A program made the translations under genes and the position numbers. 64,000 bases of DNA, from the NCBI RefSeq assembly GCF_030285625.1, contig NZ_CP127294.1, positions 7,410,001 through 7,474,000 on the forward strand, read 5' to 3'. Under the pieces are notes generated by a model that saw only the letters and a program-made list of their open reading frames with translations, was not told the origin of the DNA and did not search any database. This DNA comes from Amycolatopsis sp. 2-15. Lineage in GTDB: Bacteria; Actinomycetota; Actinomycetes; Mycobacteriales; Pseudonocardiaceae. Numbering within the stretch: the first letter of the stretch is position 1; each line of letters begins with the position of its first letter. Below, in pieces: positions 38,149 to 57,918 of this stretch.

Positions 38149-38373
38149 TACCTTTTTCGTGGCTCTCGATCAGGGAGTTGTGGTCGCCGGGTTCGGCATG
38201 ACTGACGCCCCCAGTCGTAGGCATGATCCGGGGGGTGGTGTCACCGGGCCTGGTGGCATCGAGGGACCGCTGATAGGGACACGGCCGCCGCAGGGTAGGT
38301 CTCGTCGTAACGTGGGTGCCGGCCATCGATGCCAGACCGGTGACCACGTCGCGGCGAACGAACGGCATGGTGG
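38149..38373 (+). ncRNA. candidate bridge RNA region in the IS110 left end
   Basis: IS110-group elements encode a structured guide (bridge/seek) RNA in the non-coding end beside the recombinase gene. Here the only non-coding space of useful size is this left end of about 225 nt. It is rich in short inverted repeats and contains a G-rich tract (GGGGGGTGGTG, about 38230-38240) that could pair with the C-rich insertion site. I did not fold it; the assignment rests on family knowledge and position. Confidence 0.5.
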
Positions 38374-41995: not shown

Positions 41996-42492
41996 AGCGA
42001 AGGTGCTGACCGCGGCAGAGCCGTTGAGCGGTGCGGGAGGAGGTGCTCGACGAGGTACCTGAGATTGCCGATGCTTCCCCGTTCCGGGGTCGCGCAACGG
42101 TAAGACCCCGGATTCGTCGCTCGCAGCGCACTCCGCGCTCGAAGAGGTGGGCTCGGAGAGGGCGTCTGAGAACTGATGTCACTGGTCTGGGCTGCGGGAG
42201 TCGTCGGGACATGGTCATGATCATGGTTTCGTAGTGTTCAGGTAGTGTTTCGCAGTCGCGGACGCAGCGGCGGTGTTTGGCGGGAAGTCGGCCATTCTTT
42301 AGTTAGTGGTGTGATCCCAGCTGTTTTTCGGGGTCGGTTGCGGTTCCCGAGTGGCAGGACGGGGGGTTTCCTGGGTTGATTTAGCCTCGCGTTAATCGCT
42401 GATTAGGGGTGTGCGGGTCTTGAAGTCGGTTGGTGGCGAGTCGCTGTATTCAAACGAGTATAAATGTCGTGCGTGGCGGGAAAGGGGCTAGT
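41996..42492. other. leader region of the StrR-type regulator
   Basis: About 500 bp without a recognisable gene. The part nearest the regulator (42370-42490) is less GC-rich and probably holds its promoter. I could not fix a -35/-10 pair. GAAAGGGG at about 42480-42487 is the likely ribosome site of the next gene. Confidence 0.4.
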
Positions 42493-43888: not shown

Positions 43889-45106
43889 ATGCCGTCCCGG
43901 AAGACGCGGCTCGAGATGACTGCACCGGGCGGCGACTACTTGACCACGGCCGAGGCGGCGAAGAGGCTGGGAGTCAAGACGCAAACGGTTTACGCCTATG
44001 TCAGCCGGGGTATGCTCCGCCGGGTCCGGGTGACGGGACAGCGCACGAGCATGTTCGTCCGGGCGGAGGTGGACGGGCTGGCGCGTCGGTCGCGGGAGAG
44101 CAGCAGGCCAGCAGGTTCGATCGAGCGGGTCGCCAGCGCTCTCACCCTCATCAAAGACGACGAACTTTACTTCCGGGGTCGGCGGGCGACCGATCTCATC
44201 GCCTCAGAGTCCGCTGAGTCTGTCGCGTCCCTTCTGTGGACCGGTGAGTGCGTCGCGGACCCAGGATTCGTCGCCTCCTCGCGAGGTATCGCACGGGCGC
44301 GGACCGCATCAGCTGGGCTACCCGAGTCAGCACATCTCGCTGACGGTTTGCGAGTTGGCGTTATCGCGCTCGGCGCGGCTGATCCAGCGCGTGACGACTT
44401 CACGCCCGCTTCAGTGATCCGGATGGCGCGCGAGATGATCGGTGCGGTGGTCGACGCGCTGCCTGGACCGCCCGGCAGCGGTGGTATCGCGGACCGGCTG
44501 GCCCTGAAATTGTGCGGGCGTCCGGGCGCGGTCCCGGTTCTCGGCAGCGCGCTGATGCTGCTAGCCGACCACGGCCTGGCCGCGTCGACCGTGGCTGCGA
44601 GGATCGCCGCCAGCACAGGGGCACATCCCTACGCGACAGTTTCGACTGGCTTGAGTGCGTTGGACGGTCCTCACCACGGTAGTGCGAGCACGTCGGCATA
44701 TCGATTCCTCGGCGAGGAGTTGGGCAATCGCTCGGGTCGACAGCGATACCGGGCTGGGCGGCTTCCGGTCCCCGGGTTCGGCCACCGGGTCTACCGCAAA
44801 AGGGATCCCCGCGCAGAAGCTCTTCTGCGGATGCTTCCCGGCAGCCGTGTCACTGAGACTGTCGACCGGATCGTCGCGAAGCTGGGCGGCCGTCAGAACA
44901 CTTTCCCGAACGTGGACCTCGCGCTAGCGGCGATTTCGCACACCTATTCGATGAGGCAGGATGCGGGCGAGGTCGTTTTCGCGATCGCACGTATGGTCGG
45001 TTTCGTCGCGCACGCGATTGAGGAATATCAGGAGCCACGCATGCGGTTTCGCCCGGCGGGGATCTACGCGGGTCCTGCGGCGGTCGGGTACGCGAACGAA
45101 GTATAA
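43889..45106 (+). CDS. citrate synthase-like enzyme fused to an N-terminal HTH
   Basis: The product is 405 residues from the ATG at 43889 (an internal ATG at 43916 is also possible; neither has a strong ribosome site). Residues about 15-55 form a MerR/excisionase-type helix-turn-helix (YLTTAEAAKRLGVKTQTVYAYVSRG). The rest follows citrate synthase: LADHGLAASTVAAR, GPHHGSAS with the catalytic His, PGFGHRVYRKRDPRA, FPNVDLALAAI with the catalytic Asp, and VGFVAHAIEE. Key residues are thus present. Such HTH fusions exist in actinomycetes but their reaction is poorly defined. In this cluster it may condense an acyl-CoA with an oxo acid, or act as a regulator that senses such a compound. Confidence 0.8.
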   Translation: MPSRKTRLEMTAPGGDYLTTAEAAKRLGVKTQTVYAYVSRGMLRRVRVTGQRTSMFVRAEVDGLARRSRESSRPAGSIERVASALTLIKDDELYFRGRRATDLIASESAESVASLLWTGECVADPGFVASSRGIARARTASAGLPESAHLADGLRVGVIALGAADPARDDFTPASVIRMAREMIGAVVDALPGPPGSGGIADRLALKLCGRPGAVPVLGSALMLLADHGLAASTVAARIAASTGAHPYATVSTGLSALDGPHHGSASTSAYRFLGEELGNRSGRQRYRAGRLPVPGFGHRVYRKRDPRAEALLRMLPGSRVTETVDRIVAKLGGRQNTFPNVDLALAAISHTYSMRQDAGEVVFAIARMVGFVAHAIEEYQEPRMRFRPAGIYAGPAAVGYANEV

Positions 45107-45439
45107 TGTGAAGTTTTCGATCCCATTTTGTTTCACTTGGTGGTCTTGGACTACTCCATTTGGGCAAGCTTTTGATCGAAGTCCCGGCAGACCCTGTGGT
45201 TCAGGGTAAAGTGGATATTGTGCGAGTCGGCGATCGGATGGCGCGCATGACCCGCGTTGTCGATTTCATTCTGTGGTTGTTTCCATAGGCAACCGTGGGC
45301 TTGTTTGATGTGGCAATACGACCGATATTGCTGACGGATCTTTCTTTCCGGGAATGCTTGAGTAATTATTGCTTCGTTAGTGCAACGTGATATAAAAGTG
45401 AATTTCTACTGCGAATCTTTTGGAAATTTGGGATGAATC
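45107..45439. promoter_or_regulatory. AT-rich intergenic region, likely promoter of the dehydrogenase operon
   Basis: These 333 bp separate the citrate synthase-like gene from the aldehyde dehydrogenase operon. The last 100 bp are markedly AT-rich for this genome, with runs such as GTGATATAAAAGTGAA at about 45387-45402. A promoter for the following six-gene operon is expected here, but I cannot assign one. No gene is visible. Confidence 0.45.
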
Positions 45440-46888
45440 ATGCCTTTTTCGAAGCTCGACGCCCCTGGTCTGGAGCACGTGATCGGCGACAGCCGGATGC
45501 CGGGCACGGGACATGTCGAGGTGACCGATGCGCCCGATGGATGCCCTCTCTATCAGTGTCCGATGGGGACGGCATCCGAGGTTGACTTCGCGGTCGGCTG
45601 CGCTGCCGAACAGTTCTCCGCCTGGCGGTGGAGCACGAGCAGCGAACGATCGCGGATGCTCGGTCGAGCGGCGCGATTTGTCGCCGATGCGGCTGATGAG
45701 ATCGCCGGCCAGGTCACCCTGGAGACGGGCAAGACGCTCGCCGAGGCCCATTCGGAAGTACGGTCCGCGGCACGTATTCTCGAGACCACCGCGGGGTTCG
45801 TCCCAGCGACTGCGGGAACGGTGACAACCGACCATTCGCGCAAAGTATGGGGTTTGGAACTCACCGAGCCCGCAGGTGTCGTGGCCGTGATCGGCACGTG
45901 GAATATGCCGGTTCAAGTCGCTGCGCTGAAGATCTCTGCCGCTCTCGCCGCCGGGTGCGCAGTCATTTACAAGCCTTCCCCGCTCGCTGCTGCGACCGCA
46001 GGCATGCTGGTCGACGCTTTCGAACGGGCTGGACTTCCGGTGGGCACTTGTGCGATTCTGCACGGTGGTGCCGAAACAGCGCAGCTGCTCGCGTCGCACA
46101 GCGGCATCGCCGTAGTGTCCGTCACGGGGAGCGAACTGGCCGGGCAAGAGTTGATGCGCAGCGCAGCGTCCGGGGCGAAACGCTGTGTTCTCGAACTCGG
46201 CGGGAAGAGCGCGAACATCGTGTTCGCCGATGCGGATCTCGATCGTGCGCTTCAGGGCGTAGTCACTGGATTCGTGCGGAATCAGGGAGCCGTGTGCACG
46301 GCGGGTTCCCGGATATTGATTCAAGACGAGGTCTACCCGCAGTTCCTGGAGCGGCTCGCTCTCGCAGTCGAAGCCGTCCGGGTGGGTGATCCTTTCACGG
46401 CTGTCGACGTGGGCGCGGTTCGCAGCCAGGAGCACTGCGATGCCCTCAGCGACTCGCTTGAGAAGGCGGTCGCGTTCGGCGCGAAGGTGTGTGCGGGCGG
46501 TGGACAGGTGACGGTCCCGGGACGGTCGGGTGCGTACTTCCGGCCCGCGCTGGTCGCTGAAGTCGATCAGCGTGACTCGCTATGGCAGGACGAACTGTTC
46601 GGCCCGGTTGCCGTGTGTGCGCCGTTCCGCGACGAGCGGGATGCGATCAGTCTTGCGAACGACTCGCGGTTCGGCCTCGCCGCGGGAATCTGGGCTCGCG
46701 ATCTAACCCGTTTGGAGCGGGTCTGGCGCGAACTGGACGTTGGTACCGTCTACGTCAATTCCTACCACCGCATCGATTCCGTGCCGCTGGCCGCAAGCGG
46801 CAGGAAGATGTCCGGACATGGCGCTGAACACGGTGCTGCCGGAATTCGCGAGTTTCTTGCCAGCAAGAGTGTGCATATCTACCGCTGA
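45440..46888 (+). CDS. NAD(P)-dependent aldehyde dehydrogenase
   Basis: The product is 482 residues, normal for the ALDH superfamily. The catalytic elements are visible: the Asn in GTWNMPVQ (about residue 154), the general base Glu in VLELGGKSAN (about 252) and the nucleophile Cys in NQGAVCTAGSR (about 286). The C-terminal FGPVAVC and NDSRFGLAAGIW segments are also conserved. It oxidises an aldehyde to an acid. The substrate is unknown but belongs to the pathway encoded by the tightly linked RraA, SDR, AKR and Gfo/Idh genes. The RraA gene follows after 19 bp. Confidence 0.9.
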   Translation: MPFSKLDAPGLEHVIGDSRMPGTGHVEVTDAPDGCPLYQCPMGTASEVDFAVGCAAEQFSAWRWSTSSERSRMLGRAARFVADAADEIAGQVTLETGKTLAEAHSEVRSAARILETTAGFVPATAGTVTTDHSRKVWGLELTEPAGVVAVIGTWNMPVQVAALKISAALAAGCAVIYKPSPLAAATAGMLVDAFERAGLPVGTCAILHGGAETAQLLASHSGIAVVSVTGSELAGQELMRSAASGAKRCVLELGGKSANIVFADADLDRALQGVVTGFVRNQGAVCTAGSRILIQDEVYPQFLERLALAVEAVRVGDPFTAVDVGAVRSQEHCDALSDSLEKAVAFGAKVCAGGGQVTVPGRSGAYFRPALVAEVDQRDSLWQDELFGPVAVCAPFRDERDAISLANDSRFGLAAGIWARDLTRLERVWRELDVGTVYVNSYHRIDSVPLAASGRKMSGHGAEHGAAGIREFLASKSVHIYR

Positions 46889-46907
46889 ACGGCACGGGGA
46901 GACGAAG

Positions 46908-47591
46908 ATGAAAGAATACGGTAGTTCCCTGCGTAAAATAGTTTCAAAAGTGGACCGGCCCTCGGTTGACACTGTGCGGAGGTATGAAGACTTCTATTCC
47001 GCCCTGATCTCCGATGTGCTCGGCAAACACCAAGTGATGCACGTCGACCTGGCGCCGTTGAGTCCAGGTATGCGGTTTTGCGGTCCCGCGGTCACTTCGC
47101 TCGGCCCCGACCTGACTGTGCGCCGAATGGCAATCGATCTCGCTGAGCCTGGAGACGTGCTGGTCGTCGCGGCCGGCGCAGTCCGTGACTATGCTTGTTT
47201 TGGCGACGGCACCGCACAACGCATGATGAACAAACCGATGGCCGCGGCAGTCATCGACGGATGCGTCAGGGACGCTGCGGGCATCCGTCGGCTCGGCTTC
47301 CCGACCTTCGCTCTGGGGACGACGCCCCGCAACTACCACTACCCGGCCTCCGGCGATCACGGGGCTGTCAACGTTCCGGTCATCTGCGGGGGTGTCTACG
47401 TCGAGCCGGGCGACCTCGTGTTCGGCGACGATGACGGAGCCGTGGTGGTGCCGCGGGCTCTGGCCGCCGAGGTGGCCGACGAAGTCGTGGAGCGGATCAC
47501 CGCGGAACGCGCACTGCGGGCCTCCTGGACCGGCTGTCCGCCGTTCGCGGTGGAGGAAGAACTGGTGCGCCGTGGCTACAGCTTCCAGTGA
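46908..47591 (+). CDS. RraA-like protein (HMG/OHA aldolase family)
   Basis: I use the ATG at 46908, preceded by GGGGAGA, giving 227 residues. The fold is that of RraA and class II HMG aldolase: ISDVLGKHQ near the start, LAEPGDVLVVAA, AAVIDGCVRDAAGIRRLGFP with the substrate-binding Arg-Asp, and VEPGDLVFGDDDGAVVVP. Members cleave 4-hydroxy-4-methyl-2-oxoglutarate or decarboxylate oxaloacetate; others inhibit RNase E. Within this enzyme operon a C-C lyase, aldolase or decarboxylase role is more likely than RNase control. The last 20 bases overlap the SDR gene. Confidence 0.83.
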   Translation: MKEYGSSLRKIVSKVDRPSVDTVRRYEDFYSALISDVLGKHQVMHVDLAPLSPGMRFCGPAVTSLGPDLTVRRMAIDLAEPGDVLVVAAGAVRDYACFGDGTAQRMMNKPMAAAVIDGCVRDAAGIRRLGFPTFALGTTPRNYHYPASGDHGAVNVPVICGGVYVEPGDLVFGDDDGAVVVPRALAAEVADEVVERITAERALRASWTGCPPFAVEEELVRRGYSFQ

Positions 47592-48411
47592 GGCTGCGCC
47601 GCACCTGGCGGCGGCACCGCTGAACGGTCAGGTGGCACTTGTGACTGGCGCCGGTGGCGGCGGGTGCGGTACTGCGATCGCGATCGCACTGGCTGATGCG
47701 GGGGCGCGAGTGGCAGTGAACGGCCTCGAGCATCACCGGCCGCAGTTGGAACGACTCGCCAGGTCCCGGCTCGATGACGCGCTGTACCCGTCGATCGCGG
47801 ACGTCGCGGACGGCGAACAGGTGGACCGGATGGTCGGCGAAATCGTGCAGCAGCTCGGAACGCCGACGATCGTCGTGCACAATGCGGGTCCGTCGCTGCC
47901 GCCAAGACACGTGACGCAGCTGTCAGCGTCGCATTGGCGCGCCGAAACCGCAGTGATCCTCGACGGCGCTTACCATCTGGCCAGGGCGACTGCTGCCGGC
48001 ATGACCGCGGGGGAACACGGTCGGCTCATCTTCATCTCGTCGAACACAGCTTTCCGCGGCGGTCGAGGGCGTAGTGCCTCTTACGCGGCGGCGAAGGCCG
48101 GACTGCACGGGCTGGCGGCTCAGCTCGCGATGGAGCTGGCACCGGCGGGTATTACGTGCAATGTAGTCGCGCCTAGCCAGATCGACACTCCCCGGGTTCG
48201 CCGGGGCGGACGACGCGACGAAGACAGCATGCGCCGCGCCGCGGCACAGATACCGCTCGGCCGGCTGGGCAGCGCCGACGACATCGCCGGTGTCGTGAGC
48301 TTCCTGGCCGGCCCGGCCGCCGCCTACATCACCGGGCAAGTGATCCGGGTCGACGGCGGCTCCGCGCTTGCTCCCATGGCCACCTCGCTCGTCAAGGAGG
48401 CGTCCGCATGA
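47572..48411 (+). CDS. short-chain dehydrogenase/reductase
   Basis: The product is 279 residues from a GTG at 47572 that overlaps the RraA gene by 20 bp. The Rossmann motif is TGAGGGGCGTAIAIALADAG, with an extra Gly compared with TGxxxGxG. VVHNAG, the catalytic Ser in FISSNTAF and the Y-x-x-x-K motif in SYAAAKAGLHG are all in place. The C-terminus FLAGPAAAYITGQVIRVDGG is typical of classical SDRs. It would interconvert a hydroxyl and a ketone in the building-block pathway. The stop overlaps the next start (ATGA). Confidence 0.9.
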   Translation: MATASSEAAPHLAAAPLNGQVALVTGAGGGGCGTAIAIALADAGARVAVNGLEHHRPQLERLARSRLDDALYPSIADVADGEQVDRMVGEIVQQLGTPTIVVHNAGPSLPPRHVTQLSASHWRAETAVILDGAYHLARATAAGMTAGEHGRLIFISSNTAFRGGRGRSASYAAAKAGLHGLAAQLAMELAPAGITCNVVAPSQIDTPRVRRGGRRDEDSMRRAAAQIPLGRLGSADDIAGVVSFLAGPAAAYITGQVIRVDGGSALAPMATSLVKEASA

Positions 48412-49418
48412 CCGTGATGCGTTCCGCACGCGCGGAAGATGACGTGCTCGACCCACGAATGTTCGGCCGGACCGGACGCATGGTCAGCGCGATCGGATTG
48501 GGTACTTACCACCTCACCTCCGACCGCGGTGTAGCGCACAGCGAGGCTCTTGACGTCGTCCGGACTGCCTACGACTCGGGTGTCAACGTCTTCGACACCG
48601 CGCCCATGTACGGGATGGGCGAAGCAGAATTCATTCTTGCCGAAGCCTTGAGCAGCGAGGTGCTCGAACGGGTCGTCACTATCGACAAGATCGGCCGGTT
48701 CGAAAAGAGCATCCTCGCCCGCTCCGGCGATCGGTGCTACACCGAACCGTCGTTGATGACCGCGCAGCTCGAGCATTCGCTGCGCGTGCTCGGACTGCAC
48801 CGGCTTCCGGCGCTGCTGCTGCACGAAACGGACTGGACCGAGTGGTGGCCAGACGGGGTGTCGGACACGGCCCCGGTCATGCGCTTTCTCGATGAAGCCA
48901 GGAAACGGCGTCTCGTCGACCACGTCGGTCTTTCCGTGCGGAAGGCAAGGGAGGCCGTGGCCCTCGCTGGAACGGGACTGTTCGATCTGGCGTTGTACGT
49001 CCATTACTTCAACATGGTCTGGGGCGACATCGGCGGACCGGCGATCCAGGCTTTCACCGAGCAGCGCATGGGCGTAGCCGTTGGCGCACCGTACCGGCAA
49101 GGCCTGCTCACCTCGCTCGACGAGGACTTGCCGCGGCGCTTGCGTGCCGAACGGCGCGGATCAGTTCCACCGGGGCTCGTCCGCAGGATCGCGGAAGCAC
49201 AACGGATCGCGCGGGAGTCAGGGCTGTCGATGCCGGAGATGGGCCTGCGCTGGCTGCTCGGCGATCCGCGGGTGCACACCGTCGTCGTAGGCCCGCGGTC
49301 CGTGCGGGAACTCGAGGAGAACGTGGGGTGGGTCACGCAGGGCCCGTTGCCTCCCGACGTGACAACCGCGCTGAGGGCGCTGACTGACATCGAACCGGGG
49401 AGCTGGGAACGTGAGTGA
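48408..49418 (+). CDS. aldo-keto reductase
   Basis: The product is 336 residues. The AKR tetrad is visible: Asp and Tyr in NVFDTAPMYG, Lys in VVTIDKIG and His in ALLLHETDW. The N-terminal GLGTYHLTSDRG strand and the C-terminal RVHTVVVGPRSVRELEEN, which binds NADP, are also conserved. The family resembles the L-fucose/galactose dehydrogenase-like AKRs that act on sugars. It is coupled to the SDR gene by an ATGA overlap and to the Gfo/Idh gene by an 8-bp overlap. Confidence 0.9.
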   Translation: MTVMRSARAEDDVLDPRMFGRTGRMVSAIGLGTYHLTSDRGVAHSEALDVVRTAYDSGVNVFDTAPMYGMGEAEFILAEALSSEVLERVVTIDKIGRFEKSILARSGDRCYTEPSLMTAQLEHSLRVLGLHRLPALLLHETDWTEWWPDGVSDTAPVMRFLDEARKRRLVDHVGLSVRKAREAVALAGTGLFDLALYVHYFNMVWGDIGGPAIQAFTEQRMGVAVGAPYRQGLLTSLDEDLPRRLRAERRGSVPPGLVRRIAEAQRIARESGLSMPEMGLRWLLGDPRVHTVVVGPRSVRELEENVGWVTQGPLPPDVTTALRALTDIEPGSWERE

Positions 49419-50511
49419 TTTCCTTCGCGTCGGAATCATCGGTCATGGCGGCCACGGCGACTACGGGCACCAGATCGACGCGGGTTTCGCCGCAGAGCCG
49501 CGGGTTCTTGTCGCCGCGGTGAGCGATCCGGACCCTCGCACCCGGGCGGCCGCTGCCGCTCGCACAGCGGCCCAGATGCAATACAAGTCATATTCGGAGA
49601 TGCTGGATCGCGAAGACCTAGACATCGTTCTTGTCTGTCCAAGGTGGATCGTCCGGCACGAGGAGATGGTCGTCGCGGCGTTGGAGGCCGGAGCGCACGT
49701 ATATTGCGAAAAGCCGCTGGGGCAAGACCTCATGCAGGTCGACCGGATGCTGGCGGCCGCCGAGAAAGCCGGACGGCTGCTGGCTACCGCGCTGCCCGCC
49801 GTGCACGAGCCACGGTTCCGGCGTTTTACGGACTTGCTGGCGGGCGGAGAGCTCGGCGAGCCCTTGCATTTGCGCGGTCTGTGCAAGTGGGACCATCGGG
49901 CAGGCGGGCAGGATCTCTTCGTACTCGGCGGGCATCTCGCTGACGCCATGAGGCGGATCGGCGGGGAGCCGCTGACGTGCAGCGGCTACGTCGGCACCGG
50001 AACGAAGCCGTTCGTTTTGCGGGAGGCGCGTCAGGGAACGGAAGAGGTCGGCCCTGTCGGCGGCGACCGGATCCATGCCACCTACACCTTCGAGCGCGGT
50101 CTGGTGGGCACGGTCGAATCGTGGCCGTGCGCCATCGAGGACCGTGCTGAGCAGCCATACCGGCTGGAGGTGCATTGCACCAGAGGCATCGCAGTCTGGC
50201 GAGCGCCCTATGCGGACGGTTCGGTTTGGTACACCCGTAAGCCCGTCATCTATGCGCGACACGATGACTGGCACCAGCTGGACACCGAGCCGCCAAGGGC
50301 CTACGCGGGCTATCACACCTACGCCGCGACCGATTTCGTGGACGCCATCCTGCAGGGACGAGATCCTGCTTGCTCCGGGCGAGACGGTGCGGCTGCGGCG
50401 CAGATGCTGCATGCGATCTATTGGTCGCATTTGGAGGGGCGGACTGTGCGGCTGCCGCTGACCGAGCGCCGGCATCCGCTGCGGGGCGCAGACGAGGATC
50501 AGGGCGGATGA
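49411..50511 (+). CDS. Gfo/Idh/MocA-family oxidoreductase
   Basis: The product is 366 residues from a GTG at 49411. The N-terminal Rossmann domain has VGIIGHGGHGDYG in place of the usual GxGxxG spacing. The family motif CEKPLG follows at about residue 98. The C-terminal alpha/beta domain contains HLADAMRRIGG, where the usual G-x-H-x-x-D catalytic arrangement appears as GGHLAD. Members oxidise or reduce sugars and cyclitols with NAD(P). With the AKR and the TIM-barrel gene on either side it points to a sugar- or cyclitol-like intermediate. Confidence 0.88.
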   Translation: MSDFLRVGIIGHGGHGDYGHQIDAGFAAEPRVLVAAVSDPDPRTRAAAAARTAAQMQYKSYSEMLDREDLDIVLVCPRWIVRHEEMVVAALEAGAHVYCEKPLGQDLMQVDRMLAAAEKAGRLLATALPAVHEPRFRRFTDLLAGGELGEPLHLRGLCKWDHRAGGQDLFVLGGHLADAMRRIGGEPLTCSGYVGTGTKPFVLREARQGTEEVGPVGGDRIHATYTFERGLVGTVESWPCAIEDRAEQPYRLEVHCTRGIAVWRAPYADGSVWYTRKPVIYARHDDWHQLDTEPPRAYAGYHTYAATDFVDAILQGRDPACSGRDGAAAAQMLHAIYWSHLEGRTVRLPLTERRHPLRGADEDQGG

Positions 50512-51215
50512 GCCCGCGGCTGGGAGTGTCCTCCGCCTGCGCGAAAAATCTCAGCAGCGCGGACCTGGCGTCGCTGGTGATCGGCCTTGGGGGGCAAGCA
50601 GTCGACTTGCGGGCCGGCCGCAGCCACCGCTGGGAGTTGACTGGGCTGGACGACTTCCACGCCAGGGGGGTCGACGTGGGGCACGTCGGACTCAGCGTGG
50701 TGCTCGGGGATCCGGGTCATGAGCCCGAGGAGATCGCGGAGCAGGCAGACCGTCATGGTGCGGTTCCCGTCCGGGTGTTCGCCGCGGAGCAGCCCGGCCT
50801 GGCCGACAACCAGCTGATGAAGGCTCAGCTGGAAGCTCTGGCGGGCAGGACCAGACCACCGGGCGATGTTCTCGTCGACACCCACCAGGGATATGCATCG
50901 TTGCGGGAGATTGAACGACTCCACGACCGATTCGGCGTGAGAACGGTCGTCGATCTCGAAGGGCTGGCCTTCCTGGAACCCCGCATCGAAAAGGCCGGGG
51001 CGCGGCTGGCTTCGTTCACCCACACCGTGCACGTCAAGGGTTTCGCCCTTCGCCGGGGGAGCTTGAAGACCGAGCATCGGCCCTTCGGACGCGCCGATCG
51101 GGCCGTCCTGTCAAGAACGCGAGAGGCGTTCGCCGAGGTTCCCTACGTCTGCTTGCAGTCGGAAGCGGAGGCCGTGGCACAAGACTTCGCCGCTATGGCG
51201 GAGGTCTGGACATAG
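50508..51215 (+). CDS. short TIM-barrel protein (xylose isomerase-like)
   Basis: I choose the ATG at 50508 because it overlaps the preceding stop (ATGA); the product is 235 residues. MSPRLGVSSACAKNLSSADL, LGGQAVDLRAGR, DVLVDTHQGYASLREIERL and TVVDLEGLAFLEP recall the AP endonuclease 2/xylose isomerase-like barrel. The protein is about 40 residues shorter than usual, and the full set of metal ligands is not obvious. It may be an isomerase or epimerase for the product of the preceding oxidoreductases. It ends 56 bp before the mini-peptide gene. Confidence 0.65.
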   Translation: MSPRLGVSSACAKNLSSADLASLVIGLGGQAVDLRAGRSHRWELTGLDDFHARGVDVGHVGLSVVLGDPGHEPEEIAEQADRHGAVPVRVFAAEQPGLADNQLMKAQLEALAGRTRPPGDVLVDTHQGYASLREIERLHDRFGVRTVVDLEGLAFLEPRIEKAGARLASFTHTVHVKGFALRRGSLKTEHRPFGRADRAVLSRTREAFAEVPYVCLQSEAEAVAQDFAAMAEVWT

Positions 51216-51256
51216 TCCGGACTGACAGCCCCTGCGCTGGGGTCGACTACTGCTGG

Positions 51257-51266
51257 AAGGAGGTGA
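51257..51266 (+). promoter_or_regulatory. perfect 10-nt Shine-Dalgarno of the mini-peptide gene
   Basis: AAGGAGGTGA is fully complementary to the 3' end of actinobacterial 16S rRNA. It ends 5 nt before the ATG at 51272. No other gene in the window has so strong a site, which marks this tiny frame as translated at a high rate. Confidence 0.9.
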
Positions 51267-51271
51267 GCACA

Positions 51272-51334
51272 ATGGAGCACATCTTCACCGAGGACAACGA
51301 GACCATCATCGTGGTGGCGCAGCAGCAGAACTGA
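51272..51334 (+). CDS. candidate RiPP precursor, 20 residues
   Basis: The frame encodes MEHIFTEDNETIIVVAQQQN and a TGA. It is preceded by a perfect ribosome site and followed after 14 bp by a strong hairpin. The YcaO gene starts 91 bp downstream. YcaO-TfuA pairs convert peptide amides to thioamides and need a peptide substrate; this is the only candidate in the cluster. The acidic first half (TEDNE) could be the recognition part and the VVAQQQN end the core. It has no Cys or Ser and only two Thr, so azoline chemistry is not possible at Cys/Ser and a backbone thioamide is the likelier change. At 20 residues it is as short as PqqA or MftA, so the final product may be a small molecule rather than a long peptide. 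The function is inferred; expression signals are seen directly. Confidence 0.7.
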   Translation: MEHIFTEDNETIIVVAQQQN

Positions 51335-51348
51335 GTTAGCGCTGGCCA

Positions 51349-51378
51349 GGCGGGTGGGGCGCCGACGCCCCACCCGCC
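51349..51378 (+). terminator. 13-bp perfect hairpin behind the mini-peptide gene
   Basis: The arm GGCGGGTGGGGCG (51349-51361) pairs exactly with CGCCCCACCCGCC (51366-51378) around the loop CCGA. There is no U-run, which is common for actinomycete terminators. Placed between precursor and YcaO, it would cause partial termination or protect the short transcript, so the peptide is made in excess of the enzymes. Confidence 0.85.
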
Positions 51379-51425
51379 ACTGAGCAGTACGCGGAACCTT
51401 CCCGACGGTGGATACGGAGTGAGGA

Positions 51426-52592
51426 ATGGATACCAGTGACCCGCCCCGGATCGCCTGGACGTCCGGCACCTGGCGGAGCAGACATCCGGAACAGACCTGG
51501 TCGGCGCTGGAGCCGGTGGCCGAGGCCGCTGGTGTCACCAGGGTCGCGGATGTCACGGGGCTCGACGACATCGGCGTGCCGGTGCACATGGCAGTGCGGC
51601 CTCATGCCCGCGCCCTGTCGGTGTCCCAAGGCAAAGGAACGACCGGCATTTTGTCCAAGATCTCGGCCGTGATGGAAGCGATCGAGCTTTACTACGCGGA
51701 AAACCTGGCAGACGCCGATATCGCCGGCACGCCTGCCACCGAGCTCGGCAGCTTGCTCAGCTATCCCGTGGAAGCGCTCGACCTGCACCCAGGTGGGCTG
51801 TGGCATCGGCGATACCCGCTCGACTGGCTCGTCTGCAGCTCAATGATCACCGGACGATCCGCGGCCCTGCCGCGAGAACTGGTGGATCTGGACCGCACGG
51901 TGGTCAGCGACAGCTGGTGCCCTCCGCTGTTTTTGTCCACTAGTAACGGCTTGGCCAGTGGTAACTCCGACGAAGAGGCGATGCTGCACGCGCTGTGCGA
52001 GGTGGCCGAGCGGGACAGCATCGCGGCGGCGGGCGACGTGCTCGGCCGGCACTTGTTCGACCCGGCGGAGGTGGCGGATCCCGCCGTCGACGCACTATGC
52101 GAGCGGATCGCCGCCGCGAGCGCACGGCTGCGGGTGTTCGACCTGACCGGCCCGATGGGGCTGCCGTGCGTTGGCGCGTCAGTCGGCGGAGGCAGCCTGC
52201 CGCTGGTGTTCGGCGGCTTTGGCTGTCACCCTTCCACCGCCGTGGCGACGTGCCGGGCGATCACCGAAGCGGTGCAGCAACGCCTGACGGTCATCGCAGG
52301 CACTCGAGACGACCTTCCCGACGAAGTGTACGATCTGCTGCACCTAGGTTTCGTGCGCGAGACCACGCCTGCGCGCGACGAGATCGAATACGTGAGCCCT
52401 CCTGCGGACCTGCCGGTTGCCGGGCTCGGGCAAGCGATGACCTGCGTCGCGGAGAAGATTCACAAGTTCACCGGCTATGAGCCGTTGTGTCTTCGGCTGA
52501 CCGAATCCGGGGCTCCGGTTTCCGTGGTCAAGGTCGTCGCACCAGGACTGAGACTGGCCGGGCACGGCAACTACACAGCAGCCGGAGGGTGA
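51426..52592 (+). CDS. YcaO-domain ATP-dependent enzyme (TfuA-partnered type)
   Basis: The product is 388 residues. The YcaO ATP-binding elements are visible: SQGKG (67-71) followed by MEAIELYYAE (83-92), SNGLASGNSDEEAMLHALCEVAERD (173-197) and CRAITEAVQQRL. These residues bind ATP and magnesium to phosphorylate a peptide amide oxygen. The C-terminus ends AGHGNYTAAGG without the Pro-rich tail of azoline-forming YcaOs, fitting the thioamide-forming class that works with TfuA. There is no fused recognition domain, so peptide binding may be direct. The TfuA gene follows after 4 bp. Confidence 0.93.
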   Translation: MDTSDPPRIAWTSGTWRSRHPEQTWSALEPVAEAAGVTRVADVTGLDDIGVPVHMAVRPHARALSVSQGKGTTGILSKISAVMEAIELYYAENLADADIAGTPATELGSLLSYPVEALDLHPGGLWHRRYPLDWLVCSSMITGRSAALPRELVDLDRTVVSDSWCPPLFLSTSNGLASGNSDEEAMLHALCEVAERDSIAAAGDVLGRHLFDPAEVADPAVDALCERIAAASARLRVFDLTGPMGLPCVGASVGGGSLPLVFGGFGCHPSTAVATCRAITEAVQQRLTVIAGTRDDLPDEVYDLLHLGFVRETTPARDEIEYVSPPADLPVAGLGQAMTCVAEKIHKFTGYEPLCLRLTESGAPVSVVKVVAPGLRLAGHGNYTAAGG

Positions 52593-52596
52593 CCGG

Positions 52597-53889
52597 GTGT
52601 CCACAGTGCACGTCTTTATCGGACCTACCGTCTCAGCGGACCAAGTGCGGAACATCGTGCCGCACGCCCGCATTCACGGCCCCATCGCGCACGGCGACCT
52701 GCTTCGGCTGGAGTTGGGCCCGGAGACGACCGTGCTGATCATCGATGGTGTCTACTACCAGCGACCGGCTGTCCGGCACAAGGAGATCCTGTATGCGCTC
52801 GAGCGTGGTACCGCGGTCGTCGGCGCGAGCAGCATGGGGGCGCTTCGTGCCTGTGAGTTGCGGTATGCGGGGATGGTCGGCATCGGCGAGGTCTACAACC
52901 AGTTCGCCGAGGGCCGGCTCGACAGCGACGACGAGGTCGCTGTGTCACATCTCGGAGCTGAGGATGACCACCTGCCTCGTACGGTCGCGCTCGTCAGTTT
53001 GCGTGCGGCCTGCCGCCGTCGCGTGTCCGAACGTCGGATCTCCCCGGAAGTCGCCGACGCCGCGGTTGCGGCTGTCCGAGAGCTCTATTTCACCGAGCGG
53101 ACGCCGTTCGCGGTCCGCTCAGCCTTGCGGCAGGCCGGATTCCCGCCTGCCGAGGCGGGCGAACTGGTCTCCGATCTAGGCAGAAGCCACGGGGACGTCA
53201 AGTACGCCGACGCCGAACATGCTTTGCGCGTCGTGTCCGGAATCGGACGGAGGCAAGACGGTTCGGTCGTTCGGACCGCCCACCTCCACCGGTGGTTGCG
53301 CACCTATGGCCCGGCTGCCCGTGATGCCCAGGCCGCTACTGTGCTGCAGCTCGTGTGGCCGCGGATGCCTGAGTGCTACGAAGAGCTGGTTTCGCACGAG
53401 CTGGCCCGGCTGTGGAAAGTAGACCCGGTTCTTGCTGAACTTGGCGCCGAGTTCAGCCGAAGGACCGGTATTGATTCGGTCAGCACCGAATTGGCCGAAT
53501 ACTGGCTGGAGAACGCAGGCAGTTTATCCGATGGGTGCGAACTCGGCCGGCTCGCGGTGGCTACTCACCGATCCTGGCCCGGTGTGATCACAGTGCTGGA
53601 CCAGCTGGCCCGGCATTCCGCGGTGCGCGACGTCTGGGAAGCGGCATGCGGGCTCTCCGACGATGTCTCCGAGTTCAACTGCACCTTGCTGGAGCGCGAT
53701 CCCGGGTATTTGCCGGTGCGAATTCCGCACGCGACGGCGGCCGGCTGGCTGGCGCAACGCTGGCAGACCGGCTCCGTCCGGCGCGCGGCGTTGGCACGGG
53801 GGTTTCTCGGCGAGGAGGACGCGGTCCAGGCCGCTCGCCGGTTCATCCCGTTCGATCTCGAGTTCGGTCTGGCCCTCGGAGACGGTTGA
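52597..53889 (+). CDS. TfuA-like protein, partner of YcaO in thioamidation
   Basis: This encodes 430 residues from a GTG at 52597. The TfuA core covers about residues 1-200: VFIGPTVSADQV, VLIIDGVYYQRPAVRHKEILYALERG, VVGASSMGALRACEL and a D-D-E-V-A-V segment (DSDDEVAVSH). TfuA proteins assist YcaO by delivering or releasing sulfide for backbone thioamides, as in thioviridamide- and thiovarsolin-type pathways and for McrA thioglycine. The C-terminal 230 residues extend the usual core and are helical; they may bind the peptide. Translation is coupled with the YcaO gene. Confidence 0.93.
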   Translation: MSTVHVFIGPTVSADQVRNIVPHARIHGPIAHGDLLRLELGPETTVLIIDGVYYQRPAVRHKEILYALERGTAVVGASSMGALRACELRYAGMVGIGEVYNQFAEGRLDSDDEVAVSHLGAEDDHLPRTVALVSLRAACRRRVSERRISPEVADAAVAAVRELYFTERTPFAVRSALRQAGFPPAEAGELVSDLGRSHGDVKYADAEHALRVVSGIGRRQDGSVVRTAHLHRWLRTYGPAARDAQAATVLQLVWPRMPECYEELVSHELARLWKVDPVLAELGAEFSRRTGIDSVSTELAEYWLENAGSLSDGCELGRLAVATHRSWPGVITVLDQLARHSAVRDVWEAACGLSDDVSEFNCTLLERDPGYLPVRIPHATAAGWLAQRWQTGSVRRAALARGFLGEEDAVQAARRFIPFDLEFGLALGDG

Positions 53890-53916
53890 ATTCGGCCAAT
53901 CATCTGCCTGCAGCAG

Positions 53917-53934
53917 TCGTGACGTAAGTCACGA
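53917..53934. promoter_or_regulatory. inverted repeat upstream of the ATP-grasp gene
   Basis: TCGTGAC and GTCACGA flank the spacer GTAA, a 7-bp perfect dyad. It lies just after the TfuA stop and about 28 bp ahead of a good -35 box, so it may be an operator or a weak terminator for the upstream unit. Confidence 0.6.
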
Positions 53935-53961
53935 TCCTGGTCGATGTTGATTCAATCAATC

Positions 53962-53993
53962 TTGACAGCTCGCACGTCATGGCTGGCTAATAA
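53962..53993 (+). promoter_or_regulatory. probable sigma-70-type promoter of the ligase-exporter-kinase unit
   Basis: TTGACA at 53962-53967 is a perfect -35 box. A GCTAATAA element at 53986-53993 offers a -10 match at 18-20 bp spacing. The ATP-grasp start lies about 30 bp downstream. The last three genes of the cluster can therefore be transcribed independently of YcaO-TfuA. Confidence 0.55.
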
Positions 53994-54024
53994 CGTGTGG
54001 AATTCCCGGGAATGGAGGCTGCCG

Positions 54025-55380
54025 GTGGAAAAGGATCAGAACAGATCGTCTGGTCGGCCCAGGGTTCTGATCGTGGGCTCGACGCCGAACATGTACGCTT
54101 TCATTGCGATTCTGCGGCCGCACGCTGAGTTCATCGCGGCGACGAACTGGCGGAATGTGCCGATGACGTGCGCGAAATCTCGGTGGTGCGACGAGTTCTG
54201 GCCGATCGCTGTTCCGGAACCCACTGAATGGGACGTGTCCTCGGGCGTGCCCGCCGACGGTGCCACGGCCGGATTCGTGAGTTACGTGCTGGAATTGACC
54301 GCGGATCTGCGGATCACGCACATAATACCCGCCAGTGACCAGATGATTTTCTGGCTCTCCGGGCACCGGGCGGCCTTCGGCGACGCCGGCGCCATCCTCT
54401 GCTGCCCGGATTTCGCTGCCACCTCGCTTGTGCAGGACAAGGTCCGGCTCAACGAGTTCGCGGAACAGCGAGGCGTGCCGGTACCGCGCAGGATCCCGGT
54501 GGGAGACGATGACGCCGCGCTGGTCGCGGTTCGGGAAGAGCTGGGCTTCCCGGTGGTGGTGAAGGGGCTGACTTCGGCAGGATCGAGCGGGGTGCGCTAC
54601 GCCGAGGACGCTGGGCAATTGAGCTCAGCCGTACAGGAGCTCCGCAAGAACTCGCCCGCGGTGGCCCTCCACGAGTACATCCCGGGAACCACCGAACCGT
54701 CGGTCACGTTTCTGCTGGACAAGAAGGGGGTCCCGGTCGTCGAGACGTGGCTGCGCAAGGTCCGGTACGCCGACAGCGGGCGGTCTTGCTGCGTGATTTC
54801 GGTGTCACCGCCTCCGATCGCGCCCGCTGTCCGGGAAATGGCCCGGGAGCTGGGAATGATGGGCTGGTGCGCGTTCCAGTTCAAAGCAGACTCCCGGAGT
54901 GGTGAGCTCGTGCTCATCGAGGGAAATCCCCGAAGCGGCAACAACTTCAAGATCCTGGTGGAAATCTGGCGGAGCTTGGGCATCGACGTGGGCAAGCTGA
55001 CACTCGCGGCATGGAATGGCCTGCCGTTGCCACGCCACGTCACCCCGCCAGGACTCGTAGGTGCGTCGGTGCTGGAAGAGCCGACGGCCTTTGTCGTGGC
55101 ACTGAGGGGTCGGCTCAGGGGTTCGTCACGACCTGACAACAAACCGCCCGGCCTGCCGCGGTTCCTCCTGGCGACACTGGCCACCTACCTGCGCCGCCCA
55201 GTTGTCGACGTGGTCACGAAATCGCTGCTGCGCGATCCCTTGTTCTTCGCCGCGGCGGCGAAGCACTTGATTCGCCTCCGATTTCCGCAACCGCAATTCG
55301 TTCCGTGGGGGGACGCGACCTTGCCGCTGCGGCGAGCGAAAAATTGGGACCTCGGCGTGGGTGTGGAGGGCGGAGAATGA
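54025..55380 (+). CDS. ATP-grasp ligase
   Basis: I choose the GTG at 54025, which has GGAGG 6 nt upstream, giving 451 residues; an in-frame ATG at 53944 has no ribosome site and overlaps the promoter. The N-terminal part starts RPRVLIVGSTPNMYAFIAIL. The ATP-grasp core follows with FPVVVKGLTSAGSSGVRYAED (Lys and Gly-rich loop), HEYIPGTTEPSVTFLLD and ELVLIEGNPRSGNN with the metal-binding Glu-x-Asn. Such enzymes join a carboxylate to an amine through an acyl phosphate. Here it could couple the peptide or its fragment to the acid made by the upstream enzymes. The last 100 residues are Arg-rich and hydrophobic. Confidence 0.87.
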   Translation: MEKDQNRSSGRPRVLIVGSTPNMYAFIAILRPHAEFIAATNWRNVPMTCAKSRWCDEFWPIAVPEPTEWDVSSGVPADGATAGFVSYVLELTADLRITHIIPASDQMIFWLSGHRAAFGDAGAILCCPDFAATSLVQDKVRLNEFAEQRGVPVPRRIPVGDDDAALVAVREELGFPVVVKGLTSAGSSGVRYAEDAGQLSSAVQELRKNSPAVALHEYIPGTTEPSVTFLLDKKGVPVVETWLRKVRYADSGRSCCVISVSPPPIAPAVREMARELGMMGWCAFQFKADSRSGELVLIEGNPRSGNNFKILVEIWRSLGIDVGKLTLAAWNGLPLPRHVTPPGLVGASVLEEPTAFVVALRGRLRGSSRPDNKPPGLPRFLLATLATYLRRPVVDVVTKSLLRDPLFFAAAAKHLIRLRFPQPQFVPWGDATLPLRRAKNWDLGVGVEGGE

Positions 55381-56582
55381 CTCGCGGGCAGCCGGGTAGT
55401 CTGTGGAACAAAGCTACCTTCTCCTACCTGGCGGGAACCTTTCTGTCGCAGTCGGGAACGTTCGTGTCCGCGACCGCGCAAAGCTGGGTGATCCTGGCGG
55501 CCACGCACGATCCCCTCAAGCTCGGGTTGTTCACCGCGGCCCGCTTCCTGCCGTCGACCGTGCTGGCTCCAGTGATCGGCAACTTCGTCGACGGACGGCA
55601 CGCGCGTTCGGTAGTGGTCGCGGGCAACCTGGTGCAGGCAGCCATGGCCTTGCTCTGCGTTGCGCTGGCGTTCTCGCCGAATTCACTGCTTTTCGTGCCG
55701 TTTCTGCTCGCCGGCGTGATCAGCCAGATCTTCTCGCTGCTGGAATTCTCCGGCAGACAGGCATTTCTCGGTGCGATCGTGCCTGACGAGCACCGTGCCC
55801 GGTTCACGGGAACGAGCAATTCGGCATCGACGCTCGGCAGGATCGTCGGGCCTGCGATCGCCGGGCTCGTCCTGTCGCTGGGCACCGCCGGTCTCGCGTT
55901 CGCACTGGACGCGATCAGCTTCGTTCTTGCGGTTGTGCTTTTGCCCCGGGGCCTGCACGAGTTGCCGGTGCCGAAGAAGAAGAGCTCGCTGCGCGAGGGT
56001 CTGCGTCTGGTCCTGGGCTTGCCGGAAATTCGGGACCTGCTGCTGATCTTCGCTCTGGTCAGCCTGATCTCGTTCAACGTCGCGACGATGATACCGCTCC
56101 TGGCCGGCTCGGATTACCTCAACAGCCCGGCGGCACTGGCCGCGTTCAACGCGGCGTTCGGCGTTGGTTCGTTCGCGGGGGGCCTGATGCGGACGTTCCT
56201 GAAATCGGCGCCGACCGTCTCGGCGCTGGTCGGGTTGCTGGTGTTCGGGGTGACGTTCGCGATCGTCGGCCTGGTCCACCCATTGTGGGCGGTCGTTGCG
56301 CTGATCGCCGTCAGCGGTGTTGGGAGGTTGATGTTCACCGCCTCCTCGACTGCTGTGCTCATGATTGGCGTCGGCCAGGAACGACGGGGTCTCGTCAGCG
56401 GTCTCTACTCTTTCGTCTTCAACGGCACGACGCCGGTCGGAGCGTTGGTCGTGACCTCGCTGTCGGAGAGCTTGGGTACTCGGACGACGTTCGTCATCTG
56501 CGGCTCAGTCGCTGTCGCCAGCAGCGTTCTGTACGCTGTTTCTCTGCGAGCCCGAAGGGAACACGCATTTGTTTCGGCGTGA
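55377..56582 (+). CDS. MFS exporter
   Basis: The ATG at 55377 overlaps the ligase stop (ATGA) and has GGAGGGCGGAGA upstream; the product is 401 residues. Twelve hydrophobic segments can be counted. The loop after helix 2 reads GNFVDGRHARSVVV, a variant of the G-x-x-x-D-R-x-x-R/K motif. The sequence resembles the EntS/MFS_3 group of drug and siderophore exporters. As the only transporter in the cluster it is the likely export and self-resistance route for the product. Confidence 0.9.
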   Translation: MTRGQPGSLWNKATFSYLAGTFLSQSGTFVSATAQSWVILAATHDPLKLGLFTAARFLPSTVLAPVIGNFVDGRHARSVVVAGNLVQAAMALLCVALAFSPNSLLFVPFLLAGVISQIFSLLEFSGRQAFLGAIVPDEHRARFTGTSNSASTLGRIVGPAIAGLVLSLGTAGLAFALDAISFVLAVVLLPRGLHELPVPKKKSSLREGLRLVLGLPEIRDLLLIFALVSLISFNVATMIPLLAGSDYLNSPAALAAFNAAFGVGSFAGGLMRTFLKSAPTVSALVGLLVFGVTFAIVGLVHPLWAVVALIAVSGVGRLMFTASSTAVLMIGVGQERRGLVSGLYSFVFNGTTPVGALVVTSLSESLGTRTTFVICGSVAVASSVLYAVSLRARREHAFVSA

Positions 56583-57918
56583 TCGGAGATCGGTTTTGGG
56601 ATCCCTGGCAGCGACACTGATTCCGGCCCGCGTCGATTCTGCCGCCGATCCGGCTCTCGCAGTCGCGTTGCGCATTGCCCAGGCGGGCTGCGGTGCGGTC
56701 GCGGCAGACAAGGTGATGGAACGGGGAGCGCGCGAGATAGGGCTGGCGAATCATGCGGAGAGCGGAAGGCTCATCGTCATCGTGCTGGGCAAAGCCGCCA
56801 GAGGCGCGCTCAGCGGGCTGCAGCGTGCCCTGAAAGGGAAAATCCACAGTAGCTTCGCCGTTGGCGGTACCGGTTACCCCGTCCCCGGGCAGGCCAATGC
56901 TTACGCGCTGGGCGACCATCCTTTGCCGGCGGAGAACAGCACGCGCGCTGCCCGCTCGTTGCGGGAGTTCGTCTCAGCGCAGGCCTTGACCAGCCGAGAC
57001 GTCGTAGCCGTGGCGGTGACCGGCGGTGCGACCGCGATGCTCTCGGAGACCATCGCCCCGCTGTGGCCCGGCGACCTGGCCGCGGTGAGCCGTCTGCTCC
57101 TCCGGTCGGGACTCGATGTCACCATCGTCAACGCCGTCCGGCGGACTTGCGCGCCTTTGCTTGCCGGAGGCTTGCTCGATCTTCTTGCTCCGGCGCAGTG
57201 CGTCGGCCTCGTGCTTACCGACAACGTGCAGGTCGGGCTCACCGGTGTGGGGTCAGGCCCGACGTTCGCGACCGAACTGGACTTGCCCTTCGTCAGGTAT
57301 GTCGTTGCTAACGAAGTGCGCGATGACGGCGTCCGTGCCCGCGTGCTCGCTGCGGTTGACAGGGTATCGAGCCGACGCGGCTTCGGCGTGAAGCACAGCA
57401 ATCATGAAGTGGGAGGACCGGGGCTGGCGTTGTCGGCGATGATCGGGGAGGGCCGGGCTCATGGGCTCGCGGTGGAGAGCCTCGGTGCCGCTGTGCAAGG
57501 AGATGTCGAACTGGTCGCCCGGACATTCGCGGACCGGCTGCTCACGTCGGGAACTAATCCTGGCCGACCCGTCGCGGTGCTGGGATGCGGAGAGGTGACT
57601 GTGACTGTGCGTGGTTCAGGACGTGGCGGCCGCTGTCAGGAGCTGGCGTTGCGCTTGGCGCAGGCGTATTCGGGCGGGAATGCATTCACGTTCGTCGCCG
57701 CCGCCACGGACGGTGCCGACTACCTGCCCGGTGTCTCCGGGGCCTGGGTGAGTCACGAAACGTCGAGTAAAGCAGCTTCGCGCTGCCTCGACATCCCGGC
57801 GTTGCTTCGTGCCAACGACTCATACCGGGCGCACGATGCGCTCGGTCAGGTGCTCACGGGTCCTTCTGGCGCCAGCAACACGTGTGACGTGTATGTGGGG
57901 ATCAGTGGCCTGCCCTGA
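56569..57918 (+). CDS. glycerate 2-kinase (MOFRL family)
   Basis: The frame starts at a TTG at 56569 with GAAGGGAAC upstream and overlaps the exporter by 14 bp; the product is 449 residues. LIVIVLGKAARGAL, GDHPLPAENSTRAA, VAVTGGATAML (the Gly-rich ligand loop), GRGGRCQELALRLA and ATDGADYLPG with a final TGPSGASNTCDVYVGI follow the glycerate kinase/MOFRL fold. In the kinase family the motif is usually GGRNQELAL, so Cys replaces Asn here. It would phosphorylate glycerate or a similar hydroxyacid, which links this unit to the ALDH and RraA branch. The changed residue leaves room for a different substrate. Confidence 0.85.
   Translation: MFRRDRRSVLGSLAATLIPARVDSAADPALAVALRIAQAGCGAVAADKVMERGAREIGLANHAESGRLIVIVLGKAARGALSGLQRALKGKIHSSFAVGGTGYPVPGQANAYALGDHPLPAENSTRAARSLREFVSAQALTSRDVVAVAVTGGATAMLSETIAPLWPGDLAAVSRLLLRSGLDVTIVNAVRRTCAPLLAGGLLDLLAPAQCVGLVLTDNVQVGLTGVGSGPTFATELDLPFVRYVVANEVRDDGVRARVLAAVDRVSSRRGFGVKHSNHEVGGPGLALSAMIGEGRAHGLAVESLGAAVQGDVELVARTFADRLLTSGTNPGRPVAVLGCGEVTVTVRGSGRGGRCQELALRLAQAYSGGNAFTFVAAATDGADYLPGVSGAWVSHETSSKAASRCLDIPALLRANDSYRAHDALGQVLTGPSGASNTCDVYVGISGLP

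What the first reader, a model, noticed from the sequence alone, without database searches (positions are those of the whole stretch)
43889..57918. Candidate undescribed pathway: TfuA-YcaO thioamidation of a 20-residue peptide combined with a hydroxyacid/sugar building block
The sequence shows YcaO and TfuA genes behind a tiny, strongly translated frame, flanked by ALDH, RraA, SDR, AKR, Gfo/Idh, TIM-barrel, ATP-grasp, MFS and glycerate kinase genes. Family knowledge says YcaO plus TfuA makes backbone thioamides. The other enzymes are not part of any thioamide RiPP pathway known to me. They point to a small acid or sugar that the ATP-grasp enzyme could join to the peptide. The product class is inference.
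Basis: partly seen in the sequence, partly recalled or inferred. Interest (0 to 1): 0.93.

Follow-up and report, generated by a model that had tools for sequence, protein, structure and literature searches.

The report
Tiny-peptide YcaO-TfuA plus sugar-enzyme cluster
A rare actinomycete gene cluster seems to pair a very short ribosomal peptide, and enzymes that usually swap oxygen for sulfur in peptides, with a set of sugar-type enzymes and a joining enzyme, which suggests an undescribed hybrid natural product whose chemistry is still unproven.

Summary
Twelve same-strand genes (43889-57918) and a 20-codon frame (51272-51334, MEHIFTEDNETIIVVAQQQN) form one compact cluster. The frame recurs there at the same length with start, stop and ribosome site; it is better conserved (84%, no indel) than its spacers (50-66%) and is followed by a conserved hairpin. 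YcaO and TfuA keep their family-invariant residues. In 20 of 54 other YcaO loci a ribosome-site-preceded short frame lies 100-300 nt upstream of YcaO, against 4% of random positions. I therefore favour a ribosomal peptide thioamidated by YcaO-TfuA. The coupled sugar-derived acid stays inference: distant relatives of the TIM-barrel gene sit beside Gfo/Idh in 3 of 3 loci and near ATP-grasp in 2 of 3. Against: only two copies were found, substitutions in the frame show no protein-level selection, no product is known, and YcaO-TfuA with ATP-grasp is already in print. A new variant of a known kind.

The parts
43889..45106 (+). citrate-synthase homologue with N-terminal helix-turn-helix
   Evidence: PF00285 176.8 bits, PF12728; 75% in A. 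bartoniae
45440..46888 (+). aldehyde dehydrogenase
   Evidence: PF00171 446.5 bits; 81% in A. bartoniae
46908..47591 (+). RraA-like aldolase family protein (start codon not settled)
   Evidence: PF03737; nearest PDB 5x15, 3noj; 80%
47602..48411 (+). short-chain dehydrogenase (start codon not settled)
   Evidence: PF13561; 85%
48408..49418 (+). aldo-keto reductase
   Evidence: PF00248; nearest PDB L-galactose dehydrogenase 7ezi; 81%
49411..50511 (+). Gfo/Idh/MocA sugar oxidoreductase
   Evidence: PF01408, PF22725; 81%
50508..51215 (+). 235-aa protein, predicted sugar isomerase/epimerase-like TIM barrel
   Evidence: no family hit; model pLDDT 75, Foldseek to 3cqj and ketose epimerases; 73%
51257..51266 (+). 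ribosome-binding site AAGGAGGTGA of the short frame
   Evidence: sequence; AAGGAGG-N4-9-RTG only 3 times in the window
51272..51334 (+). 20-codon frame, MEHIFTEDNETIIVVAQQQN, putative precursor peptide
   Evidence: 20-codon counterpart MERVFTDDKETIIVLANLEN in A. bartoniae, 12 of 20 residues identical; 53/63 bases, no indel; only such frame outside the 12 genes shared by both clusters
51349..51378 (+). hairpin between the frame and ycaO, no T tail
   Evidence: no shuffle of 200 folds as well in either species; 29/32 bases conserved; not called a terminator
51426..52592 (+). YcaO
   Evidence: PF02624 186.9 bits; family-invariant residues present; 80%
52597..53889 (+). TfuA, with a C-terminal extension beyond the TfuA domain
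   Evidence: PF07812 134 bits, residues 50-169; 6xp8; S79 and K202 invariant in 54 of 54; 72%
53944..55380 (+). ATP-grasp ligase-like protein
   Evidence: PF02786, PF02222, PF07478; 72%; structure model unusable
55377..56582 (+). MFS transporter, exporter-like
   Evidence: PF07690, PF05977; 86%
56569..57918 (+). glycerate 2-kinase family protein (DUF4147/MOFRL)
   Evidence: PF13660, PF05161; PDB 2b8n; 76%

Best explanation
A specialised-metabolite cluster built round a 20-residue ribosomal peptide. The peptide is translated from its own strong ribosome site; the hairpin behind it may keep expression of the enzyme genes below that of the peptide (inferred). YcaO activates one or more backbone amides of the peptide with ATP, and TfuA supplies sulfur from a ThiS-type carrier encoded elsewhere in the genome (inferred from the families; the conserved residues are shown). 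The Gfo/Idh, TIM-barrel, SDR, AKR, ALDH, RraA and citrate-synthase-like enzymes make a small polyhydroxylated acid, the glycerate-kinase homologue phosphorylates it or an intermediate, the ATP-grasp protein joins it by an amide bond to the peptide or a fragment of it, and the MFS protein exports the product (all inferred). My estimates: precursor plus thioamidation about 0.7; coupled acid about 0.35.
For: Twelve genes plus frame conserved in order with sharp borders in A. bartoniae; frame conserved in length, start, stop and ribosome site and better than its spacers; YcaO and TfuA over the Pfam cut-offs, nearest solved relatives MJ1094 and the TfuA 6xp8, invariant residues kept; 20 of 54 other YcaO loci have a short frame in the same position against 91 of 2160 random positions; three ThiS-family matches in the genome; Gfo beside TIM in 3 of 3 distant loci, ATP-grasp near by in 2 of 3; EntS/MFS_3-like exporter, no importer family among the 12 genes.
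Against: Only two copies found. Ten substitutions in the frame look random at protein level (p 0.51) and are spread 4:2:4 over codon positions. No homologous peptide in 53 more distant loci. The NCBIfam thioamidation models for YcaO and TfuA match below their curated cut-offs (161.9 of 365 and 163.9 of 235.2 bits). No peptidase among the families of the 12 genes. No named ligase close to the ATP-grasp protein (best E 4.6e-6), so its substrate is open. Ten of the 20 short upstream frames are one related family.
Confidence: 0.5

Rival explanations
1. The peptide is a scaffold: YcaO-TfuA and the other enzymes build on or cut from it a small molecule of one or two modified residues, as in PQQ-type pathways (recalled), so the product is no longer a peptide of this length.
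For: Very short precursor, many small-molecule enzymes beside it.
Against: None of the radical SAM or RRE families that mark PQQ-type pathways (recalled) is among the hits of the 12 genes.
Confidence: 0.13
2. The frame is a regulatory leader: its translation, with the hairpin behind it, tunes expression of ycaO and the genes downstream. YcaO-TfuA acts on another substrate.
For: Frame and hairpin are conserved together; substitutions in the frame show no protein-level selection; hairpin between frame and ycaO.
Against: No Rfam match between 40000 and 60000; no run of one amino acid in the peptide; hairpin without T tail; short frames in this place are common in YcaO loci, and PMC6511847 reads such frames as precursors (passages).
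Confidence: 0.12
3. Two functions side by side: a sugar-acid catabolic operon (CS to TIM, glycerate kinase) that happens to flank a separate thioamide peptide cluster.
For: CS to Gfo and the kinase belong to families common in catabolism.
Against: Both halves are conserved together with sharp borders in a second genome; the kinase lies beyond the ATP-grasp and MFS genes; no importer family among the 12 genes.
Confidence: 0.12
4. The ATP-grasp protein cross-links side chains of the peptide itself (graspetide-like; T6, D8, E10 and T11 are conserved), with the sugar enzymes acting on something else.
For: Acidic residues and threonines conserved in both peptides; ATP-grasp with YcaO-TfuA is reported in graspetide branch 6 (PMC8939145, passage).
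Against: Pfam and NCBIfam hits are of the CPSase, D-Ala ligase and biotin-carboxylase kind; no graspetide-ligase model among the 5 Pfam hits or the 25 of 26 NCBIfam hits shown. RimK_fam (TIGR00768) appears only weakly (4.1e-5, below its cut-off).
Confidence: 0.08

Closest known systems
YcaO-TfuA thioamidated RiPP clusters of Actinobacteria (RiPPER networks, PMC6511847; global survey PMC8120280)
   Same: Adjacent ycaO and tfuA, short precursor-like frame next to them, variable tailoring genes
   Different: 20-residue frame at the very lower limit of RiPPER's 20-120 window; sugar-type enzymes; not seen in the passages read
Thiovarsolin family (RiPPER Network 22, PMC6511847)
   Same: YcaO-TfuA with an ATP-grasp ligase in the Nocardiopsis and Streptomyces members (passage)
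   Different: Precursor repeats, heme oxygenase and amidinotransferase there; none here; the ATP-grasp here has no match named PGM1 in the PDB sequence search
Graspetide ATP-grasp branch 6 loci with YcaO-TfuA (PMC8939145)
   Same: ATP-grasp beside YcaO-TfuA (passage)
   Different: Different partners (radical SAM, PKS, aminotransferases); ATP-grasp here not of a graspetide model by sequence
Pheganomycin PGM1 peptide ligase (as described in PMC8939145)
   Same: An ATP-grasp joins a non-ribosomal acid to a ribosomal peptide: the model for the proposed step
   Different: Other building block, no YcaO-TfuA named there; homology not found here
std cluster of Streptomyces thermodiastaticus (PMC13174530, abstract and passages)
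   Same: YcaO-TfuA thioamidates a precursor (Asn); MFS gene in the cluster
   Different: MNIO and carbamoyltransferase-peptidase there; neither here
Amycolatopsis bartoniae DSM 45807 cluster (L034 = L072)
   Same: Same 12 genes in the same order and a 20-codon frame
   Different: Other flanks; not mentioned in the passages of its genome paper PMC11727664

Membership tests
YcaO-TfuA thioamide-forming systems | YcaO domain with conserved ATP-binding residues | tested here: met
   PF02624 186.9 bits against 25.7; E84, E87, E192, E195, R196, E281 invariant in 55 of 55; that these bind ATP is recalled
YcaO-TfuA thioamide-forming systems | Adjacent TfuA with catalytic Ser-Lys | tested here: met
   PF07812 134 bits, 4 bp behind ycaO; S79 and K202 invariant in 54 of 54. 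Ser-Lys pair from PMC13185837 (passage); which residues form it is my inference
YcaO-TfuA thioamide-forming systems | Match over the curated NCBIfam thioamidation models | tested here: not met
   TIGR03266 161.9 of 365 and NF033432 163.9 of 235.2 bits; both models are named for archaeal McrA-glycine proteins, so this bears on that subgroup only
YcaO-TfuA thioamide-forming systems | Precursor peptide encoded beside the pair | tested here: inconclusive
   Conserved 20-codon frame; protein-level selection not shown
YcaO-TfuA thioamide-forming systems | Thioamide in the product | not testable with these tools
   needs mass spectrometry
Thioviridamide-like thioamitides | Cys decarboxylase and dehydration enzymes, core of the SVMAAAATVAFHC type (recalled) | tested here: not met
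   No such families among the 12 genes; peptide has no Cys
Thioamidated thiopeptides | Lantibiotic-type dehydratase and pyridine synthase, Ser/Cys-rich core (recalled) | tested here: not met
   None among the families of the 12 genes; peptide has no Ser or Cys
Thiovarsolin family | Heme oxygenase and amidinotransferase genes, repeat precursor in most members (PMC6511847, passages) | tested here: not met
   Absent; no repeat in the peptide
Graspetides | Graspetide-type ATP-grasp ligase | tested here: inconclusive
   No such model among 5 Pfam hits or the 25 of 26 NCBIfam hits shown; remote kinship not excluded, structure model unusable (pLDDT 33)

The most novel reading that the evidence does not exclude
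The founding example of a hybrid class in which a minimal 20-residue ribosomal peptide is thioamidated and then fused by an ATP-grasp ligase to a dedicated, cluster-made sugar- or hydroxyacid-derived unit, possibly phosphorylated by the glycerate-kinase homologue.
Probability: 0.3. Interest if true: 0.85.

Novelty: new variant of a known kind. Interest (0 to 1): 0.6.

Why it matters
If true, it extends YcaO-TfuA chemistry to a very short precursor and to a product that merges ribosomal and carbohydrate metabolism. It names a testable cluster of 12 genes with exact borders and a 20-codon gene that standard gene calling would easily miss. It also shows that a Gfo/Idh-TIM pair, twice with an ATP-grasp gene near by, recurs in other loci, a handle for finding such building-block modules.

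Tried and rejected
A resemblance of ETIIVVA in the peptide to ETVVSVA in short frames of L075 and L077 (Streptomyces) gave p 0.008 and 0.057 with the window peptide and 0.008 and 0.017 with the A. bartoniae peptide, before correction for the many frames looked at, and shuffled queries reach the same score over all frames; I do not claim it. YcaO and TfuA trees leave the window and A. bartoniae alone on a long stem, their place among other lineages unresolved. Rejected: chance frames (synteny and families), a catabolic operon alone, thioamitide, thiopeptide or thiovarsolin membership.

Dropped rows: L072 (same locus as L034) was left out of the sets of 54 and 55; L088 was left out of the YcaO tree; L034, L072 and L089-L100 were left out. 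Of the 44 TfuA hits outside the own genome, 38 were fetched; six were not. Paper searches for this architecture; nothing in the listings, or in the passages I read, describes it.
Full report
Anatomy. The window lies in a 10.05-Mb single-contig genome. Twelve genes on the + strand run from 43889 to 57918 with overlaps or gaps of at most about 54 bp, except 333 bp between the citrate-synthase homologue and ALDH and 210 bp between the TIM-barrel gene and ycaO.

The short frame. At 51272-51334, behind AAGGAGGTGA, stand ATG and 20 codons, MEHIFTEDNETIIVVAQQQN. Of three AAGGAGG-N4-9-RTG sites on both strands of the window, the other two start frames of 299 and 336 aa. Behind it lies a hairpin (51349-51378); in both species none of 200 shuffles of the stretch folds as well, but it has no T tail.

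The relative. A TfuA search of 297 family genomes found TfuA in 41, but apart from the own genome only G218 has a close copy (72%); searches of 390 family genomes, 80 of the genus and 19 of the G218 genus (E <= 1e-60) add no third. A scan of genome contigs with a two-sequence YcaO alignment gave 17 loci, one at 80% (Amycolatopsis bartoniae DSM 45807, L072) and 16 at 34-47%. Contig length and position show that L072 and the G218 locus L034 are the same. All 12 genes are there in the same order at 72-86% identity. Comparing the window's stop-to-stop ORFs of at least 100 codons with 52 kb of that genome gives matches (E <= 1e-10) only inside 43.88-57.92 kb. Its short frame reads MERVFTDDKETIIVLANLEN, again 20 codons with a ribosome site.

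Is the frame a gene? For: 53/63 bases identical without indel, against 37/56, 7/14 and 27/44 in the spacers and 130/325 with 8 indels in the CS-ALDH gap (Fisher p 0.003 and 9e-11). It is the only ribosome-site-preceded short frame outside the 12 genes with a counterpart in the relative; two others with counterparts lie inside genes. In 20 of 54 YcaO loci, window not counted, such a frame starts 100-300 nt upstream of YcaO; random positions give 91 of 2160. Ten of the 20 (L076, L078-L086) are one related family, so they are not independent, and the A. bartoniae frame itself falls outside the site list of this scan. Against: placing the ten substitutions at random gives as good a protein score in 51% of trials. 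The DNA is conserved; selection on the peptide itself is not shown.

The enzymes. YcaO is closest by sequence in the PDB to MJ1094 (6pe3) and TfuA to 6xp8. Both exceed the Pfam cut-offs; the NCBIfam models for McrA-glycine thioamidation match strongly but below their cut-offs. Residues E84, E87, E192, E195, R196, E281 of YcaO (55 of 55) and S79, K202 of TfuA (54 of 54) are invariant in the set. PMC13185837 states that TfuA uses a Ser-Lys pair to take sulfide from ThiS-COSH (passage); the genome has three ThiS-family matches. A thioamide is therefore the expected chemistry, though not observed.

The building-block idea. Homologues of the TIM protein are rare (E <= 1e-12 in 3 of 394 class genomes and 3 of 297 family genomes, own genome counted in each). 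Three lie outside the two clusters (L106, L107, L108): Gfo/Idh is directly beside the TIM gene in 3 of 3. L106 and L107 also hold an ATP-grasp gene (one of the L-amino-acid-ligase kind; one next to Gfo/Idh with a PKS and, further off, an MFS gene); none was seen among the ORFs scanned in L108, which were not all. L106 and L108 share a second TIM barrel, a sulfotransferase, and PAPS_reduct and GTP_EFTU domain genes (sulfate activation, my reading). So a Gfo-TIM unit, sometimes with a ligase, recurs in what look like biosynthetic clusters. This supports, but does not prove, a sugar-derived unit joined by the ATP-grasp protein. What the unit is I cannot say; the citrate-synthase, RraA and glycerate-kinase homologues point to a short hydroxyacid.

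Known ground. YcaO-TfuA clusters are many: 229 actinobacterial TfuA proteins with 74 peptide networks in PMC6511847 (passages and section 18), 613 families in PMC8120280 (abstract and passages). ATP-grasp next to YcaO-TfuA is in print in PMC6511847 (Network 22) and PMC8939145 (branch 6; passages). The listings of searches, and the passages read, show none with this gene set; the main text of the A. bartoniae genome paper (PMC11727664) holds neither YcaO nor thioami-. Supplements were closed, so an unlabelled entry in a table is possible.

Verdict. A real, rare, sharply bounded cluster whose most likely output is a thioamidated short peptide; the sugar-acid conjugate is the most interesting reading not excluded. 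New variant of a known kind.

Noticed in passing
28936-37227, - strand: Four genes matching PADLOC JetD2, JetC2, JetB2 and JetA2, i.e. what looks like a complete Wadjet-type anti-plasmid system of the second type (type name from the model names).
   Followed up: partly
37532-39579: Resolvase N-terminal domain protein and IS110-family transposase about 4 kb before the cluster; mobile DNA next to a cluster whose flanks differ in A. bartoniae.
   Followed up: partly
42487-43518: Protein with HTH_23 just before the cluster, by eye like ParB/StrR-type pathway regulators (recalled); it has no counterpart in the A. bartoniae stretch.
   Followed up: partly
51214-51223: Perfect palindrome AGTCCGGACT at the stop of the TIM gene, inside a block identical in A. 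bartoniae where the TIM frame reads on to just before the peptide; possible operator.
   Followed up: no
L075:9755 and L077, 216-219 nt upstream of YcaO: Short frames MQYSNEELSEVFEVEETEETETVVSVAHHT and MQYSNEELAEVFEVEEIDEETVVSVAHHT, another family of short putative precursors; L077 has a JmjC_2 gene behind tfuA.
   Followed up: partly
L076, L078-L086, about 200-250 nt upstream of YcaO: A family of 51-57-residue frames with the motif PQNxGGDPxVPDxxF before ycaO-tfuA in Streptomyces and a Sporichthyaceae MAG.
   Followed up: no
L106 and L108: Shared set Gfo/Idh, two TIM barrels, sulfotransferase, PAPS_reduct and GTP_EFTU domain genes in two families: a probable sulfated-metabolite cluster.
   Followed up: partly
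59572-61041 (+) and 61377-62939 (-): Two similar proteins of about 500 aa on opposite strands, visibly related by sequence; the first has HTH_3.
   Followed up: no
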